Assembly (NCBI GenBank): GCA_025350325.1
Contig: JANXYB010000055.1
Coordinates: 1 to 64,000, forward strand
From: Acidobacteriaceae bacterium
GTDB lineage: Bacteria > Acidobacteriota > Terriglobia > Terriglobales > Acidobacteriaceae
Length of the DNA: 64,000 nt
Direction of reading: 5' to 3'
The position numbers were made by a program, and so were the translations under genes. Shown here piece by piece: positions 17,743-22,782 of this stretch (positions are counted from its first letter, which is position 1; each line of letters begins with the position of its first letter). Below the pieces are notes generated by a model, which saw only the letters and a program-made list of their open reading frames with translations, was not told where the DNA came from and made no database searches.

Positions 17743-18921
17743 TCAGTACTTCTGCACCGTGGGGTCAATCTCGTCGCTCCACGCCAGAATGCCGCCCGCC
17801 AGGTTGACCACGTTTGCGTATCCGCTCTGCTTGAGGAACTCAGCAATCTTCTGGCTGCGTGCGCCGCTGCGACAATGCACCACCACCTCGCGATCGCGAT
17901 CTATCTCTGCCAACCGCTTGGGTACGTCATTTTGTGGGATCAGCTTGCCGCCGATCTGCGCAATCTGAAATTCATACGGCTCGCGCACGTCGATGAGCTG
18001 CACATCTTCTCCAGCATCGATACGCCGCTTCAGTTCCTTGACCGTGATTTGCGGAATTCCATTCTTCAAGGACTTGTCCTCTTTGCTTTCCGGCACAATG
18101 CCGCAGAAATGCTGGTAGTCAATCAGTTCCTTCACTGTCGGATTCTCGCCGCAGACGGGACACTCGGGATTTTTGCGCAACTTAAGTTCACGGAAGCGCA
18201 TGTTGAGCGCGTCGACCAGCAGCAGACGCCCGATCAGCGGAGCACCTTTGCCCAGGATGAGCTTGATGACTTCAGTGGCTTGAATCACGCCCACGAGGCC
18301 CGGCAGGATGCCCAGCACCCCGCCCTCAGCGCAGCTGGGCACGAGGCCTGGCGGTGGCGGCTCGGGATAAAGACAGCGATAGCACGGGCCCTCTTTAGTC
18401 GCGAAAACGCTGGCCTGGCCCTCGAAGCGGAAGATCGATCCGTACGCATTTGGCTTGCCCAGCAGCACGCATGCATCGTTGATCAGGTAGCGCGTAGGAA
18501 AGTTGTCGGTGCCATCAGCCACGACGTCGTAGTCTTTGAGAATCTCGAGAGCATTGGCGCTCGACAGCATCGTATCGTGCTTGACGACGTTGAGAGACGG
18601 ATTCAGAGCGAGCAGCTTTTCCTCTGCCGAGTCAAGCTTCTTGCGGCCGATGTCTTTGGTGGAGTGAATGATCTGGCGCTGCAAATTACTGGCGTCGACC
18701 ACATCGAAGTCCACCAGTCCCAGGGTGCCGATGCCCGCAGCCGCAAGGTAAAGAGCGAGTGGCGAACCTAGCCCGCCCGTGCCCACGCAGAGCACCCGAG
18801 CGGCCTTGAGCTTGCGCTGGCCTTCCATGCCCACCTCGGGCAGAATCAGGTGGCGCGAGTAGCGCGAGAGGTCGTCGGTGGTCAGTTCGGGTAGCGGAAT
18901 TCGTTCAGTCAGGACGGCCAT
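17743..18921 (-). CDS. moeZ: MoeZ-type sulfur-carrier adenylyltransferase/sulfurtransferase
   Basis: Activates a ubiquitin-like sulfur carrier by adenylating its C-terminal Gly and then placing sulfur on it. The MoeB/ThiF domain (1-275) has the nucleotide loop GTGGLGS (47-53), the zinc cysteines C180-x2-C183 and C254-x2-C257, and Cys197 in VPSCAEGG. The C-terminal rhodanese domain (290-392) carries the persulfide Cys350 in VVHCRSGARS. This fused form is the one known from actinobacterial MoeZ, which serves MoaD and CysO carriers. The ATG has GGAG 10 nt upstream. A CysO-like carrier, a JAMM peptidase and a CysM-type enzyme lie within 4 kb upstream on the same strand, which points to cysteine rather than, or besides, molybdopterin synthesis. 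Confidence 0.92.
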   Translation of the reverse strand: MAVLTERIPLPELTTDDLSRYSRHLILPEVGMEGQRKLKAARVLCVGTGGLGSPLALYLAAAGIGTLGLVDFDVVDASNLQRQIIHSTKDIGRKKLDSAEEKLLALNPSLNVVKHDTMLSSANALEILKDYDVVADGTDNFPTRYLINDACVLLGKPNAYGSIFRFEGQASVFATKEGPCYRCLYPEPPPPGLVPSCAEGGVLGILPGLVGVIQATEVIKLILGKGAPLIGRLLLVDALNMRFRELKLRKNPECPVCGENPTVKELIDYQHFCGIVPESKEDKSLKNGIPQITVKELKRRIDAGEDVQLIDVREPYEFQIAQIGGKLIPQNDVPKRLAEIDRDREVVVHCRSGARSQKIAEFLKQSGYANVVNLAGGILAWSDEIDPTVQKY

Positions 18922-18948
18922 GGGTCGAGTTCTCCGGTCAATATCAGT

Positions 18949-19584
18949 TTATCGGGTCGCTGAGGATATATGAACCGAGGCGAGTATGTTCCACAGGCTT
19001 TCGCGAATGAGATCGCCCTCAGGAGAGTTGGGTGCGCGAGTCGGCCGCCCGCCGGCCATGAGAATCGAGTAAATACCCGTATCGAAGCGAACGCATCCGC
19101 CGCGCGGGGCTCCGTTCAGGGTGGTGTAGATATCCTCGTCAAGCGTCTGGCGCATTCCGCCATTTCCCGTCTTGGTGTGCCAATAGCGAATCCCGCCGAC
19201 CGTGACTTGATCGACCGTATTCTGACGCGTGGGTTTGGTGGCGAGCGCCCGGCAAGCATCAGGCGAATCGACTCGATGTACGTCGTATGCAAACTCGACG
19301 CCGGCGAAATTTGTCTTCGGCCATCCCTCGACCCCGGCAAGGGTCTTCTTAAAAATTATGGCGCGCGGATGCTCCTTGGAGTTCGCATCGTTGACCGTAA
19401 GCTTGAACACGAACGGGGAATTTGTTAGTGAAGCCCAGTGAGATGGATATTGAAAGCTGACACCATAAGTGGGATCGTCGAAGCGGATCCCCCGTGCAGA
19501 AGCGTGTGTCGATGTTTGGGGGTCCGCGGGCACGCTGGCGGTAAGTATGGCAAGCGTTACGAAGCAAAACGCCCTGCTTAACAT
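18949..19584 (-). CDS. Secreted protein of unknown function in the sulfur-carrier cluster
   Basis: ATG at 19584 follows AGAGGA by 8 nt and opens a signal peptide (cleavage near PADPQT). The mature part begins IRFDDPTYGVSFQYPSHW, a pattern seen in PsbP-like and related small exported domains; the rest (GVEFAYDVHRVDSPDACRAL, YWHTKTGNGGMRQTLDEDIY) is not recognised. Two cysteines could form a disulfide. It lies 27 bp before the moeZ start and 67 bp after the carrier gene, so it is likely in the same transcript, although an exported protein has no obvious role there. Confidence 0.7.
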   Translation of the reverse strand: MLSRAFCFVTLAILTASVPADPQTSTHASARGIRFDDPTYGVSFQYPSHWASLTNSPFVFKLTVNDANSKEHPRAIIFKKTLAGVEGWPKTNFAGVEFAYDVHRVDSPDACRALATKPTRQNTVDQVTVGGIRYWHTKTGNGGMRQTLDEDIYTTLNGAPRGGCVRFDTGIYSILMAGGRPTRAPNSPEGDLIRESLWNILASVHISSATR

Positions 19585-19651
19585 GGTTTCAATCCTCTGC
19601 GTGATCTTCGCATCGTCTCGGTAACTACCGCTGAAGACTTGAACTGGACTC

Positions 19652-19939
19652 TTACCCCTTTAGCGAGCACCCGCCGGCGATCGAGGGGATGATCGTTAAT
19701 GTATCGGTAGCACTGACAGGCGTGGCCTCGCGGGCCGGCAAATAGCGCACGTCCTCGTCGTTCAGATAAAGGTTAACAAACGCGCGCACAGTGCCTTCGC
19801 TGGTGAAGAGATGCCGGCGCAACTGGGGATGCGCTTGCGTCAGTTCGCTGAGAGCACCGTCAACGGTGGTTGCTTTCACTTCTACAGTGTCGAGTCCGTT
19901 CGCGAAGATCCGCAGCGGTGTGGGGATAAAAATGGTCAT
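19652..19939 (-). CDS. CysO/MoaD-like sulfur carrier with residues beyond Gly-Gly
   Basis: A beta-grasp ubiquitin-like carrier of 95 residues. The ATG at 19939 follows GAGGAG by 8 nt; the long upstream frame is rejected. The body matches the CysO type more than MoaD: FVNLYLNDEDVRY and a TLTIIPSIAGG ending are very close to what I recall of mycobacterial CysO. Unlike carriers that end in the free Gly-Gly needed for adenylation, this one continues with CSLKG and then stops (TAA at 19652-19654). It would need removal of five residues before use. The QbsE carrier of Pseudomonas, which ends GGCF and is trimmed by the JAMM peptidase QbsD, is a known parallel, and a JAMM peptidase gene lies 1.5 kb upstream. 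Confidence 0.88.
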   Translation of the reverse strand: MTIFIPTPLRIFANGLDTVEVKATTVDGALSELTQAHPQLRRHLFTSEGTVRAFVNLYLNDEDVRYLPAREATPVSATDTLTIIPSIAGGCSLKG

Positions 19940-20155
19940 GCGTCCGGCTCCTCGCCAGCATTCTTTCAGATGATCGACGAGGTCAATTGGATGAAGGAAA
20001 TCGATTTGGATATGAGTATTCTTATTGTCATTCCTTGTACCGGTCACCAGAGCTGAAGAGGCACGACGGCGGAAAATGTTAGGTTGCCGGTCGGCGTGCG
20101 CAAGGGCATCGGCCCATTTTAAAGGCGTGCCGAACACCATCGGAATAGCATACTA

Positions 20156-20236
20156 TCAGGCGGCAAAGCTACGCTTGCCACGGCTGCCCTGGTGCGCGGC
20201 ACGGCCACCATACTGCTTCTTCTTGGGAAAGCGCAT
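20156..20236 (-). CDS. Possible 26-residue basic peptide
   Basis: A short frame starting MRFPKKKQYGGR is rich in Lys/Arg/Gly. It has only GGATTAAAAG upstream as a weak ribosome site. It lies in the 426-bp gap between the carrier gene and the next upstream gene, which otherwise holds a terminator. It may be spurious. Confidence 0.25.
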   Translation of the reverse strand: MRFPKKKQYGGRAAHQGSRGKRSFAA

Positions 20237-20308
20237 CTTTTAATCCGCATGAGTCGGGGTCTGTCACGGTGAAAGTGAACTGATGCACGATGCGTTGCTG
20301 CCAAAGCA

Positions 20309-20336
20309 AAGCGGCTTCGATATTCTGAAGCCGCTT
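20309..20336 (-). terminator. Hairpin terminator of the upstream secreted-protein gene
   Basis: A perfect 10-bp stem (AAGCGGCTTC / GAAGCCGCTT) with an 8-nt loop lies 30 bp past the stop at 20366. On the minus strand it is followed by TGCTTTGG. It suggests the carrier gene has its own promoter downstream. Confidence 0.65.
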
Positions 20337-20365
20337 GTGAAAGTGCTTTTCGAAGAAATGCGAAG

Positions 20366-21235
20366 CTACTTCTTCGATTTCTTCTGGTCCATGGCAGACA
20401 TTGCATGGGGTTGCCAAAACTCCGGGTCGGCCTTCATCCATGCGTCAGCCACGTAGCTCTGGCGCGGGTTGATCGAGAAGAGTTCAGTCCGCATCGACTC
20501 CACTGTTGCACCATAGAGTTCATCGAATTTCTTCATGCCTTCTTCGCCACCCATGCCCTCCATAAACTTCTTGCTTTCCGCGAACTCAGTGTCTATTTCA
20601 GTCATGGAATTGCGAGAAGTCAGCGCAATGTATGTGTCAGTCGGTGCGCCGTAGGCGATTTCAAACATAGCCCAGTGCGACGAGGTCCCGCCCTTTTCAT
20701 TCGCGTCTTTGACCATTTTGGCCAAGTCGTACCAAGCCTTACGATGTCCGGCTTTCACGTTGAAAACGATGATCTCCATGAAATGGGCGTGCGACAGGTC
20801 TGCGCGTGGACGGAAACTCAACTCGGGATCGTAAGTGTAAACCACCGAGTCCAGCGATTCGAGCAATTCGCCATCGGCTAGACCGTTGTGCTCGATTTCC
20901 GAGCCAAGAGTCGTATCTTTTTCAATGATCTTGTTGTCCTTTTCCCATTCCGCGAATGACGGGTACTGGGTGAGATATAGGGCACGCGACTTGCCTGAGA
21001 GTGAATTCAACCCGACGTAGTACGCGGGGAACTTGGCCTTGGCCATGGATGCAATAAACGCACTTTCAGTTTTGTCATGCGCCTGCCCGGCTTTGTAGGG
21101 TTTCAAGTATTCCCGCGTGATCTGCAAGACCTGCGGGATCGAAGCGGAGGGTGCTGCATCTTGCGCGGCCGCAAACGAACTGCAGGCAAGAAGCAGAGAC
21201 AGTCCCATCAGCATGGGACGATTGACTTGATTCAT
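20366..21235 (-). CDS. Secreted protein of unknown function with a NIPSNAP-like half
   Basis: The ATG at 21235 follows AAGGAGG by 9 nt, a strong site, and opens a signal peptide cleaved near SSFAAAQ. The 289-residue product has two related parts. The second (HFMEIIVFNVKAGHRKAWYD, WAMFEIAYGAPTDTYIALTS) looks like a ferredoxin-like dimeric barrel of the ABM/NIPSNAP kind. The C-terminus is Lys-rich. It lies between the JAMM peptidase gene (168 bp) and the carrier gene, with a terminator after it. No enzymatic role can be named. Confidence 0.75.
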   Translation of the reverse strand: MNQVNRPMLMGLSLLLACSSFAAAQDAAPSASIPQVLQITREYLKPYKAGQAHDKTESAFIASMAKAKFPAYYVGLNSLSGKSRALYLTQYPSFAEWEKDNKIIEKDTTLGSEIEHNGLADGELLESLDSVVYTYDPELSFRPRADLSHAHFMEIIVFNVKAGHRKAWYDLAKMVKDANEKGGTSSHWAMFEIAYGAPTDTYIALTSRNSMTEIDTEFAESKKFMEGMGGEEGMKKFDELYGATVESMRTELFSINPRQSYVADAWMKADPEFWQPHAMSAMDQKKSKK

Positions 21236-21403
21236 GATGGATAACCTCCTTGACGTGCTCAGAGATCGCTCGCGATGGGGGAAAGGAGAACGCGCGTGCT
21301 CTAAACCAAGCCGAATACTATCTTCGAATACCACACAAGTAAATAGTTTCATTCTGACTTTAAAAGCGTCGATCTAATTTTTTGCGAATTATTAGATACA
21401 AAG

Positions 21404-21844
21404 CTAATTTTGAATTTCTATATTCTCGACTTCGAATCGCTTATCTTCTTCGCTCGCCCCTGCGAGTAGAAAAGCATTGGTCGCCGCGGCCTGCCCCTGC
21501 GCTACCTCGGTAATGACGTAGCAGCAGCCCAGCCAGTGCGCCTCGGCCAGGTCGGTCGATGACCACTGCGCCGGGTGATCGGGGTGCGAATGGTAGAAGC
21601 CGGCAATGCCCAAGCCCTGCTTACGCGCCTCGCGCTCAATCCTGACTAACTCAATTGGTGCGATTTGATAGCGATTGTGCGCCGAGTCGGTGCGCATATT
21701 GCCCGCACGCACTGCGGACTCGACGAGCCACCCTGCGACAGTGTGCCGGCCGACCAGGGCACCGCAACATTCGTATGGATAGGTCTCTTTGCCATGCGCG
21801 CGTATGCTTTCGTAGACCGCTCGCGGCATGGTGAGAACGCTCAC
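21404..21844 (-). CDS. mec: JAMM/MPN+ zinc peptidase (Mec-like)
   Basis: A zinc metallopeptidase of the M67 family. In Mycobacterium, Mec releases cysteine from the CysO-cysteine adduct; QbsD-type relatives trim carrier tails. All JAMM residues are present: E25 (PYECCG), H85-x-H87-P, then S95-x2-D98 (HSHPDHPAQWSSTD). Length of 146 is typical for a stand-alone bacterial enzyme. The GTG start overlaps the stop of the cysM-like gene by 4 bases (GTGA), so the two are translationally coupled; an ATG lies five codons on. The carrier gene downstream encodes a protein with five residues after Gly-Gly, a plausible substrate. Confidence 0.9.
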   Translation of the reverse strand: MSVLTMPRAVYESIRAHGKETYPYECCGALVGRHTVAGWLVESAVRAGNMRTDSAHNRYQIAPIELVRIEREARKQGLGIAGFYHSHPDHPAQWSSTDLAEAHWLGCCYVITEVAQGQAAATNAFLLAGASEEDKRFEVENIEIQN

Positions 21845-22782
21845 GCCTGCTCCCAGAATCGCTCGCTCAAATAGTGATCGGCGGCATCACACAACACCGT
21901 AACAATTACCGCGGTGCGGCCCGCTGCAGCTTCTTCCTTTGCAATTCTCACGCAGGCATCGACGGCTGCGGCTGCTGAAATGCCAACCAGCATGCCCTCT
22001 TCGCGCGCCAACCGCTTGACCATTGCGTAAGCGGCTTCGGTTTCAACTTCGATTTCCCGGTCGGCAAGATGCGGATTGTAAATAGCCGGCACGATTGACG
22101 TCCCCATATGCTTCAAACCCTCAAGCCCATGAAAGGGCGAATCGGGCTGCATGGCAATCGCCTGCACCGTGGGGTTGTGTTCCTTGAGTCTGCGCGTGGT
22201 GCCCATAAATGTGCCGCTGGTTCCGAGCCCCGCAATAAAGTGTGTAAAGTGGCCGCCGGTCTGCGCAATGATCTCCGGGCCGGTGGTGTGATAGTGCGCC
22301 AGCCAGTTTGCGTCGTTGGAATACTGGTCTACGTAACAGAACCGCTGCGGATCATTGCCCGCCAACTCGCGCGCACGGCGAATCGCTCCATCGGAGCCCT
22401 GATCGGGATCTGTCCAATCAATATGCGCTCCGTAGGCACGCAAAATCCGCTTCCGTTCAACATTCACACTCGATGGCATGGCGAGATGCACCGGGAACCC
22501 CAGGGCCGCGCCCAGCATGGCCAAAGCAATGCCAGTGTTGCCACTGGTTGCGTCGAGCAGCGTCTTGCCCGGCGTCAGCAGTCCGCGTGCCCGCGCATCG
22601 CGCACCATCGATGCTGCAGCGCGATCTTTGACGCTGCCCCCGGGATTGGCCCACTCCGCTTTACCCAGCAGTGTGATGCCTTTCAAGTCGCGGACAACGT
22701 GGTCTAGACGTACAAGCGGGGTGTTGCCGATGCGCTCAGGAAGCGTCGTGATGGGCGGTATAAATGAAGGACTTGTTGGCAT
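21841..22782 (-). CDS. cysM: CysM-type cysteine synthase
   Basis: A PLP enzyme of the cysteine synthase family. In the mycobacterial system CysM makes cysteine from O-phosphoserine and CysO-thiocarboxylate. The Schiff-base Lys is K52 in NPGGSVKDRAA, the substrate loop is TSGNTGIA (80-86) and the PLP phosphate is bound by GLGTSGTFMG. I chose ATG at 22782 (MPTSPSF) because it matches the normal N-terminus; the frame upstream of it reads as non-protein. There is no clear Shine-Dalgarno site. It overlaps the JAMM gene by 4 bp and is divergent from the gene at 22874. Whether it uses O-acetylserine or O-phosphoserine cannot be decided from sequence alone. Confidence 0.9.
   Translation of the reverse strand: MPTSPSFIPPITTLPERIGNTPLVRLDHVVRDLKGITLLGKAEWANPGGSVKDRAAASMVRDARARGLLTPGKTLLDATSGNTGIALAMLGAALGFPVHLAMPSSVNVERKRILRAYGAHIDWTDPDQGSDGAIRRARELAGNDPQRFCYVDQYSNDANWLAHYHTTGPEIIAQTGGHFTHFIAGLGTSGTFMGTTRRLKEHNPTVQAIAMQPDSPFHGLEGLKHMGTSIVPAIYNPHLADREIEVETEAAYAMVKRLAREEGMLVGISAAAAVDACVRIAKEEAAAGRTAVIVTVLCDAADHYLSERFWEQA

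What the first reader, a model, noticed from the sequence alone, without database searches (positions are those of the whole stretch)
17743..22782. Complete CysO-CysM-Mec-MoeZ-type cysteine route in one locus, with a carrier that must be trimmed
Within 5 kb on the minus strand lie an E1/rhodanese (MoeZ type), a CysO-like carrier, a JAMM peptidase with all metal residues, and a CysM-type PLP enzyme coupled to it by a GTGA overlap. In Mycobacterium these parts make cysteine on a protein carrier. The carrier here ends ...IAGG-CSLKG instead of IAGG, so it cannot be adenylated until five residues are removed. This is the logic of QbsE (GGCF)/QbsD, but combined with a CysM pathway. Mec would then have two jobs, tail removal and cysteine release, which I have not seen described for this phylum.
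Basis: partly seen in the sequence, partly recalled or inferred. Interest (0 to 1): 0.8.

Follow-up and report, generated by a model that had tools for sequence, protein, structure and literature searches.

The report
Capped sulfur carrier in cysteine operon
A soil-type bacterium carries a four-gene cysteine-making operon in which the small sulfur-carrying protein is made with a short removable cap on its working end, and in many relatives that cap is strangely rich in cysteine, which may let the cell sense its own cysteine level.

Summary
On the minus strand, 17743-22782 encodes CysM, Mec (JAMM), a CysO-type carrier and MoeZ-rhodanese; the carrier reads ...IAGG-CSLKG-stop. The order cysM-mec-carrier-moeZ recurs across the class. 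The cap is conserved as a fact, not as a sequence: of 191 mec-linked carriers from two samples, 153 have 1 or more extra residues, 33 run in frame into MoeZ, 5 end exactly at GG. It is not new in kind: the operon was listed for an acidobacterium in 2006, and capped carriers with QbsD-type proteases are published. ThiS and MoaD in relatives are also often capped or fused. What my searches did not find in print is the make-up of the caps: cysteine-rich (61 of 620 residues, then 118 of 601 in a second sample; carrier cores 3 of 14,272), clustered, mostly in the locally rare codon TGT. A cysteine-codon sensor for the next gene, moeZ, is the boldest reading; an RNA pairing test failed, a phylogeny-controlled test was undecided, and the window's own cap has one cysteine (TGC).

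The parts
21841..22782 (-). cysM: PLP-dependent cysteine synthase, CysM type (313 aa)
   Evidence: Pfam PALP E 4e-67; TIGR01138 cysM E 2e-105 at 352.7 bits, under its 394.2 cut-off; K52 and K224 conserved in 88 and 90 of 91 aligned sequences
21404..21844 (-). mec: JAMM/MPN+ metallopeptidase, GTG start, 4-base overlap with cysM
   Evidence: Prok-JAB PF14464 E 5e-22; closest solved chain 2kcq E 2e-23; metal and catalytic residues conserved
20366..21235 (-). inserted ORF (289 aa), no family match; relatives in 4 of 40 loci (L035, L039, L041, L043), between mec and carrier
   Evidence: no Pfam or NCBIfam match at E 1e-3; tblastn
19652..19939 (-). CysO-type sulfur carrier, encoded with a C-terminal cap (95 aa)
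   Evidence: ThiS PF02597 E 4e-9; chains 4n6e_B and 3dwg_C E 1e-13 and 2e-11; AlphaFold model, Foldseek rank 1 is 3dwg_C, TM 0.82
19655..19669 (-). the cap codons C-S-L-K-G after the diglycine
   Evidence: translation; residues 89-95 have pLDDT under 50 in the model
18949..19584 (-). inserted ORF (211 aa, by eye with a signal-peptide-like start), no family match; a relative in 1 of 40 loci (L043)
17743..18921 (-). moeZ: E1-like adenylyltransferase with rhodanese domain (392 aa)
   Evidence: ThiF E 2e-82 and Rhodanese E 9e-18; CxxC pairs C180/C183 and C254/C257, C197 and rhodanese C350 kept in 108 to 111 of 113 aligned sequences

Best explanation
This is a CysO-CysM-Mec-MoeZ cysteine operon whose carrier is made as an inactive precursor. 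Steps: (1) the carrier folds with its GG followed by a flexible cap (CSLKG here); (2) the JAMM protein cuts after GG and exposes the glycine carboxylate; (3) MoeZ adenylates it and its rhodanese domain supplies sulfur, giving a thiocarboxylate; (4) CysM joins the thiocarboxylate to an activated serine, giving carrier-Cys; (5) the same JAMM protein frees cysteine and regenerates the carrier. Shown here: gene content, recurring gene order, intact catalytic residues, a CysO-like carrier fold (model), and the near-universal extension after GG in mec-linked carriers. Inferred: every enzymatic step, and that Mec itself does step 2.
For: All four genes on one strand in 30 of 40 relative loci, mec with the carrier in 36 of 40; of the 10 incomplete loci 4 end inside the operon (L057, L067, L068, L071), 3 hold only the carrier (L033, L034, L044), 2 lack moeZ (L047, L048) and 1 lacks cysM (L058) (contig ends). 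Extension or fusion after GG in 186 of 191 mec-linked carriers; in the first sample 97 of 101, against 12 of 23 carriers beside a threonine-synthase-like gene without mec (Fisher p 7e-7, related sequences). 33 mec-linked carriers run in frame into MoeZ; without a cut after GG these would have no free diglycine. On a quick, poorly resolved tree of 189 cores fused and split forms change at least 24 times. JAMM catalytic residues intact. Best structural matches are Mycobacterium and Amycolatopsis CysO. Published precedent: QbsD for capped carriers, DRJAMM cutting MoaD-MoaE to leave a C-terminal Gly, MoaX cut after Gly-Gly by a protease then unidentified. The own genome also has a MoaD-MoaE fusion after GG (MoaE by eye).
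Against: No cleavage or product was measured. 5 of 191 mec-linked carriers have no cap (L068, L081, L212, L221, L390), so the cap is not obligatory. Caps also occur on 12 of 23 thrC-linked carriers without a local mec and on 12 of 23 ThiS rows read, so the cap is not special to this pathway. In 13 same-genus stretches mec and moeZ stand together with no carrier found by HMM; three of those genomes have a carrier elsewhere. 4 of 12 class genomes without a JAB match still have a weak carrier match (G198, G212, G228, G362); their ends were not read. A cysE is present and the substrate of this CysM is untested.
Confidence: 0.75

Rival explanations
1. The carrier is a SAMP-like protein modifier. 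MoeZ acts as an E1, the JAMM protein is a desampylase that processes the precursor and removes the modifier from proteins, and CysM is only a neighbour or a target.
For: Best NCBIfam names are SAMP1 (49.2 bits) and desampylase (77.7 bits). The 2006 survey predicted E1-type conjugation where E1 and JAB occur together (passages).
Against: Both scores are under their cut-offs of 60 and 130 bits. Structure ranks CysO above SAMP1. CysM is in the operon in 30 complete loci of 40 and overlaps mec in the window.
Confidence: 0.1
2. The cap is removed, but by a different protease; the JAMM protein only releases cysteine.
For: 5 of 191 mec-linked carriers have no cap, so mec is kept for another job there.
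Against: JAB proteins are known to cut fused or capped carriers, and mec is the peptidase with the carrier in 36 of 40 loci.
Confidence: 0.1
3. The cap is neutral read-through of no consequence: stop codons wander because something always trims the end.
For: Lengths run from 1 to over 30 residues and sequence is not conserved.
Against: If length were free, zero should be common; it is 5 of 191, against 34 one-residue caps. Cysteine content and codon choice differ strongly from the neighbouring intergenic DNA.
Confidence: 0.1
4. The cysteine-rich caps of relatives act as protein: a metal-binding or redox switch that controls trimming.
For: Cysteines are clustered: 65 adjacent pairs against 35.9 expected, largest of 2000 permutations 50.
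Against: Codon choice is skewed to TGT, which a protein role would not ask for; the first 15 residues of MoeZ-fused linkers hold no cysteine in 555 residues.
Confidence: 0.15

Closest known systems
CysO-CysM-Mec-MoeZ pathway of Mycobacterium (and CysO of Amycolatopsis)
   Same: Same four protein families and pathway logic; carrier fold closest to CysO; MoeZR sulfurates CysO and Mec releases cysteine (PMC3227635 passages)
   Different: The solved CysO chains end at GG in the alignments; here the gene encodes residues after GG, or a fusion to MoeZ in some relatives
QbsE/QbsD and PtmS1/PtmS2/PtmS3 capped carriers
   Same: Residues after GG (MV in PtmS2, C in PtmS3) and a JAMM protease, QbsD as example, to remove them (PMC6006322 passages)
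   Different: Those serve natural-product sulfur; here the partner is a cysteine synthase.
Operon type 4c of Iyer 2006 (ThiS/MoaD, E1-rhodanese, JAB, cysteine synthase)
   Same: Same gene set, already listed for Solibacter usitatus (Acidobacteria) (PMC1779556 passages)
   Different: In the passages seen, caps, E1 fusions of this carrier and cysteine-rich ends are not mentioned
DRJAMM with MoaD-MoaE of Deinococcus; MoaX of M. tuberculosis
   Same: A cut after Gly-Gly frees a sulfur carrier (passages)
   Different: Molybdopterin pathway; whole-domain fusion rather than a short cap; the MoaX protease was not identified in that paper
Polycysteine leader peptides of actinobacterial cys operons
   Same: Runs of cysteine codons near a stop codon before sulfur genes (PMC1262725 passages; Canestrari 2020 known only through citations)
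   Different: Those are separate short ORFs; here the cysteine codons are the last codons of a working protein gene, in a part that would be discarded

Membership tests
CysO sulfur carrier | beta-grasp fold closest to CysO | tested here: met
   AlphaFold mean pLDDT 89, Foldseek rank 1 3dwg_C TM 0.82, rank 2 4n6e_B; a predicted model
CysO sulfur carrier | chain ends at GG as encoded | tested here: not met
   CSLKG follows GG; so it is a precursor form, not a plain CysO
CysO sulfur carrier | encoded with CysM and Mec | tested here: met
CysO sulfur carrier | thiocarboxylated by MoeZ | not testable with these tools
   needs mass spectrometry
Mec / JAMM MPN+ peptidase | E ... H-x-H-x7-S-x2-D | tested here: met
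   E25, H85, H87, S95, D98; kept in 112 (3 gaps), 115, 115, 114, 115 of 115
Mec / JAMM MPN+ peptidase | cuts carrier-Cys and the capped carrier | not testable with these tools
   needs enzyme assay
CysM (O-phosphoserine type) | NCBIfam cysM equivalog cut-off | tested here: not met
   352.7 bits against 394.2
CysM (O-phosphoserine type) | basic residue at the phosphate site | tested here: inconclusive
   K224 in 90 of 91; its match to Arg220 of M. tuberculosis CysM is from memory, not from a call
MoeZ (E1 plus rhodanese) | ThiF domain, two CxxC pairs, C-terminal rhodanese with Cys | tested here: met
SAMP1 / desampylase | NCBIfam equivalog cut-offs | tested here: not met
   49.2 against 60; 77.7 against 130
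Capped carrier with QbsD-type protease | residues after GG plus neighbouring JAMM | tested here: met
Cysteine attenuator (caps of relatives, not the window) | run of Cys codons before a stop, upstream of a sulfur gene | tested here: met
   caps of relatives, e.g. L343 CCCCCCL; the window's cap has one Cys
Cysteine attenuator (caps of relatives, not the window) | pairing that controls the next gene | tested here: not met
   cap-end to moeZ Shine-Dalgarno pairing no better than shuffled (mean z +0.26 in 69 loci with Cys caps, +0.05 in 24 without); terminators were not tested systematically

The most novel reading that the evidence does not exclude
In many Acidobacteriota the disposable cap of the sulfur carrier has a second life as a cysteine sensor. 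Its last codons are runs of the locally rare cysteine codon TGT just before the stop, upstream of moeZ. When charged Cys-tRNA is scarce the ribosome pauses there and changes moeZ expression; afterwards Mec throws the peptide away, so the codons are free to serve regulation. One stretch of sequence would be pro-peptide and attenuator leader at once.
Probability: 0.3. Interest if true: 0.75.

Novelty: new variant of a known kind. Interest (0 to 1): 0.55.

Why it matters
If right, the CysO route in this class runs on a precursor that must be unlocked by the same enzyme that releases the product, a built-in check that carrier is only loaded where Mec is present. The caps, and their repeated exchange with MoeZ fusions, give a natural series of JAMM substrates for learning what the enzyme reads. 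The cysteine-rich, TGT-biased caps make an unusual regulatory idea directly testable in named isolates (Edaphobacter lichenicola X5P2, L151, cap TSCRL; Granulicella sp. L46, L150, cap SAATGCCR).

Tried and rejected
Local stop loss in one genome: rejected, extensions are class-wide. A conserved cap sequence: rejected; only presence is conserved. A dispersed repeat as source of caps: the element ACTGGCCGTCCAGGCG (2 mismatches allowed) lies 0-40 bases behind the carrier GG codons in 7 loci (L035, L036, L042, L046, L050, L067, L149); single weaker hits lie elsewhere in 7 others, none in the window; origin unresolved. Known RNA family: none at gathering threshold in 10 loci. Shine-Dalgarno masking by the cap end: not supported; pairing was slightly weaker than in shuffles. 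Cysteine caps go with a long gap to moeZ: raw counts on the tree rows are 65 of 73 with Cys against 16 of 65 without at a gap of 110 bases or more to the E1 motif, Mann-Whitney p 5e-7 and 8e-7 in the two samples. With phylogeny controlled only 7 supported pairs remain: on average 3.2 go the same way, 0.1 the other way, 3.7 do not differ, median p 0.25; with 2 or more Cys as the trait 8 pairs, 1.9 against 1.0, median p 1. Undecided. Consensus folds of four leader groups gave 2-4 pairs with double changes each, and 4 to 16 cells that do not pair; no convincing shared structure. Canestrari 2020 (PMC8764745): not held.
Full report
What is there. Reading the minus strand from 22782 to 17743, the order is cysM (22782-21841), mec (21844-21404, GTG start, GTGA overlap), an ORF without a family match (21235-20366), the carrier (19939-19652), a second such ORF (19584-18949) and moeZ (18921-17743). 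The carrier ends IAGG-CSLKG-TAA. Its AlphaFold model is confident except for residues 89-95, and the best solved matches are Mycobacterium and Amycolatopsis CysO, then a Thermus MoaD-related protein and SAMP1. The JAMM, PLP and E1/rhodanese residues that matter are intact and conserved.

Is the operon conserved? A carrier match (E 1e-3 or better, paralogues included) was found in 50 of 60 genomes, the own one among them, and in 357 of 399 genomes of the class at E 1e-12 or better. In 40 fetched carrier loci all four genes are found on one strand in 30 and mec with the carrier in 36 (recounted). The two inserted ORFs are local: the first has relatives in 4 of 40 loci, the second in 1 of 40. Prok-JAB proteins are in 387 of 399 class genomes and in 314 of 317 of the better ones. 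Of the 12 genomes without one, 4 have a weak carrier match (G198, G212, G228, G362), in the score range of the paralogues; their ends were not read.

Is the cap conserved? First sample: 141 carrier ORFs in 60 region loci of unnamed relatives and 80 named loci, one exact duplicate dropped; 20 JAMM-centred stretches gave no carrier. Of 101 with a mec match within 4 kb on the same strand, 73 had a short extension, 24 ran into MoeZ and 4 ended at GG; L071, counted as short, runs in frame into the E1 start at a contig end. Of 23 beside a threonine-synthase-like gene without mec, 12 had an extension and 11 none; 16 fitted neither class (13 and 3). Second sample: 106 loci of new class genomes, 26 delivered and 80 chosen down its list, so biased to near relatives. 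Going down the list I left out 11 new rows (G180, G155, G215, G386, G175, G428, G278, G420, G318, G073, G366); 10 of them have open frames of 491 to 656 aa and are probably MoeZ fusions, so fusions are under-counted. 5 duplicates were dropped. Of 90 mec-linked, 80 short, 9 fused, 1 zero; 11 had no mec in the stretch held (7 short, 4 fused). Together: 153 short, 33 fused, 5 zero of 191. Short caps run 1 (34), 2-3 (35), 4-10 (46) and over 10 residues (38). One-residue caps are R 20, C 6, D 2, E 2, and H, L, V, Y one each. The residue after GG is Cys in 22 of 153 and Pro in none. Fused and split forms interchange at least 24 times on a quick tree of 189 cores (90 columns, poorly resolved).

Caps are not unique to this carrier. 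All 26 ThiS matches were fetched; of 23 rows that my motif could read, 11 end at GGG and 12 go on, 2 of them into a ThiG-like domain; of the 3 unread, L245 ends at GG. Of 54 MoaD matches 30 were fetched; of 22 rows read, 3 end at GG, 2 have short extensions and 17 go on for more than 140 residues, by eye into MoaE; 8 were not read. The window's own genome has such a MoaD-MoaE fusion. So this class tends to lock its sulfur carriers, and a JAMM protein that could unlock them is nearly always present. This supports trimming and at the same time makes the finding less special. It may also explain why 13 same-genus stretches keep mec and moeZ together without a carrier found there; three of those genomes (G005, G008, G021) have a carrier elsewhere, and L125 may hold a decayed one.

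Pathway. The route from MoeZ to carrier thiocarboxylate to carrier-Cys to cysteine is described for Mycobacterium (PMC3227635, passages). Here it is inferred from families and order. The genome has a cysE at C3:67789-68271 and a CysM/CysK-like gene beside it at C3:66804-67706, plus another at C27. So the usual route is probably present too.

The unexpected part: what the caps are made of. In the first sample mec-linked short caps hold 61 Cys in 620 residues (9.8%), against 24 of 1202 for the same DNA out of frame, 54 of 2086 in frame behind the stop, and 2 of 6498 in the carrier cores. The 12 thrC-linked caps hold 8 of 28 (cores 11 of 1062), with Cys first in 7 of 12. The 13 caps of the 'neither' class hold only 4 of 99, no more than their controls (6 of 190 and 9 of 380), so the enrichment is not everywhere. 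I then took the second sample as a check, all 87 short caps: 118 of 601 (19.6%) against 24 of 1167, 62 of 2543 and 1 of 7774; mec-linked alone 106 of 554. The first 15 residues of MoeZ-fused linkers hold 0 of 360 and 0 of 195. Examples are CCCCCCL (L343), CCTCCPLLF (L307) and SGRMADCACSCCCCR (L337). Over all short caps cysteine is TGT 142 times and TGC 49; moeZ in the same loci uses TGT 106 and TGC 977; intergenic DNA reads TGT 120 and TGC 163 over all frames, so the bias exceeds local composition but less dramatically than it exceeds coding usage. Adjacent Cys pairs number 65 against 35.9 expected in 46 caps with two or more. The sequences are related, so p-values overstate the case, but presence of Cys changes at least 27 times on the tree (151 rows).

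What it might do. Cysteine codons near a stop before sulfur genes are known from actinobacterial leader peptides (PMC1262725, passages), where no conserved terminator was found. In four same-genus loci I also found separate short ORFs with 4-6 cysteines in a row about 240 bases upstream of cysM (L036, L037, L038, L040); the carrier caps there hold one Cys (L036, L037) or none (L038, L040). Over 80 cysM upstream stretches, 10 cysteine clusters were found on the sense strand, 7 in an ORF with start and stop, against 5 and 2 on the opposite strand, a modest excess. Cysteine-poor caps are usually close to moeZ and cysteine caps far from it, as a leader would need, but phylogeny control leaves this undecided, and the one pairing mechanism I tested failed. 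I therefore give the sensor idea 0.3. The window's cap has a single Cys, codon TGC, and no cysteine run was seen in the 420 bases upstream of its cysM; the idea concerns the family, not this copy.

Literature. Seen as passages only: PMC1779556, PMC8832034, PMC6006322, PMC4326299, PMC3227635, PMC13236596, PMC9094748, PMC8632094, PMC1262725. In the listings of the searches for CysO/Mec, capped carriers, JAMM and cysteine attenuators I saw no title or abstract start describing cysteine-rich carrier caps; listings were capped and most subscription papers are not in that library, so this is weak evidence of novelty.

Noticed in passing
L083:7458-9057 and 17 other paralogue loci among L072-L091: A second carrier type lies near a threonine-synthase-like gene in 18 of 20 paralogue loci; a thiocarboxylate-using PLP pair is a possible reading, untested.
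   Followed up: partly
L036, L037, L038, L040, upstream of cysM: Short ORFs with 4-6 consecutive Cys codons about 240 bases before cysM; by eye an arm GGCTTGTCC behind the run can pair with GACAAGC downstream, with a matching double change in L038.
   Followed up: partly
L035, L036, L042, L046, L050, L067, L149, just behind the carrier GG codons: A GC-rich element ACTGGCCGTCCAGGCG, at most 2 mismatches, 0-40 bases behind GG, coding in some loci and after the stop in others.
   Followed up: partly
L062, L154, L173, L188, L356, L397: Cap end TGY-RTC-TGT-AGN-TAG followed by CCTGG and a downstream CCGGGC or CTGGGC, conserved at DNA level across these six loci.
   Followed up: no
L122-L130 and L132-L135 (same-genus genomes): mec and moeZ together with no carrier found by HMM in the stretch, in several also without cysM.
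   Followed up: partly
L228 and L239; 17 loci among L249-L277: ThiS running in frame into a ThiG-like domain and MoaD into a MoaE-like domain after GG (domains by eye).
   Followed up: partly
window 20366-21235 and 18949-19584: Two ORFs without Pfam or NCBIfam match inserted in the operon; the first recurs in 4 same-genus loci.
   Followed up: no
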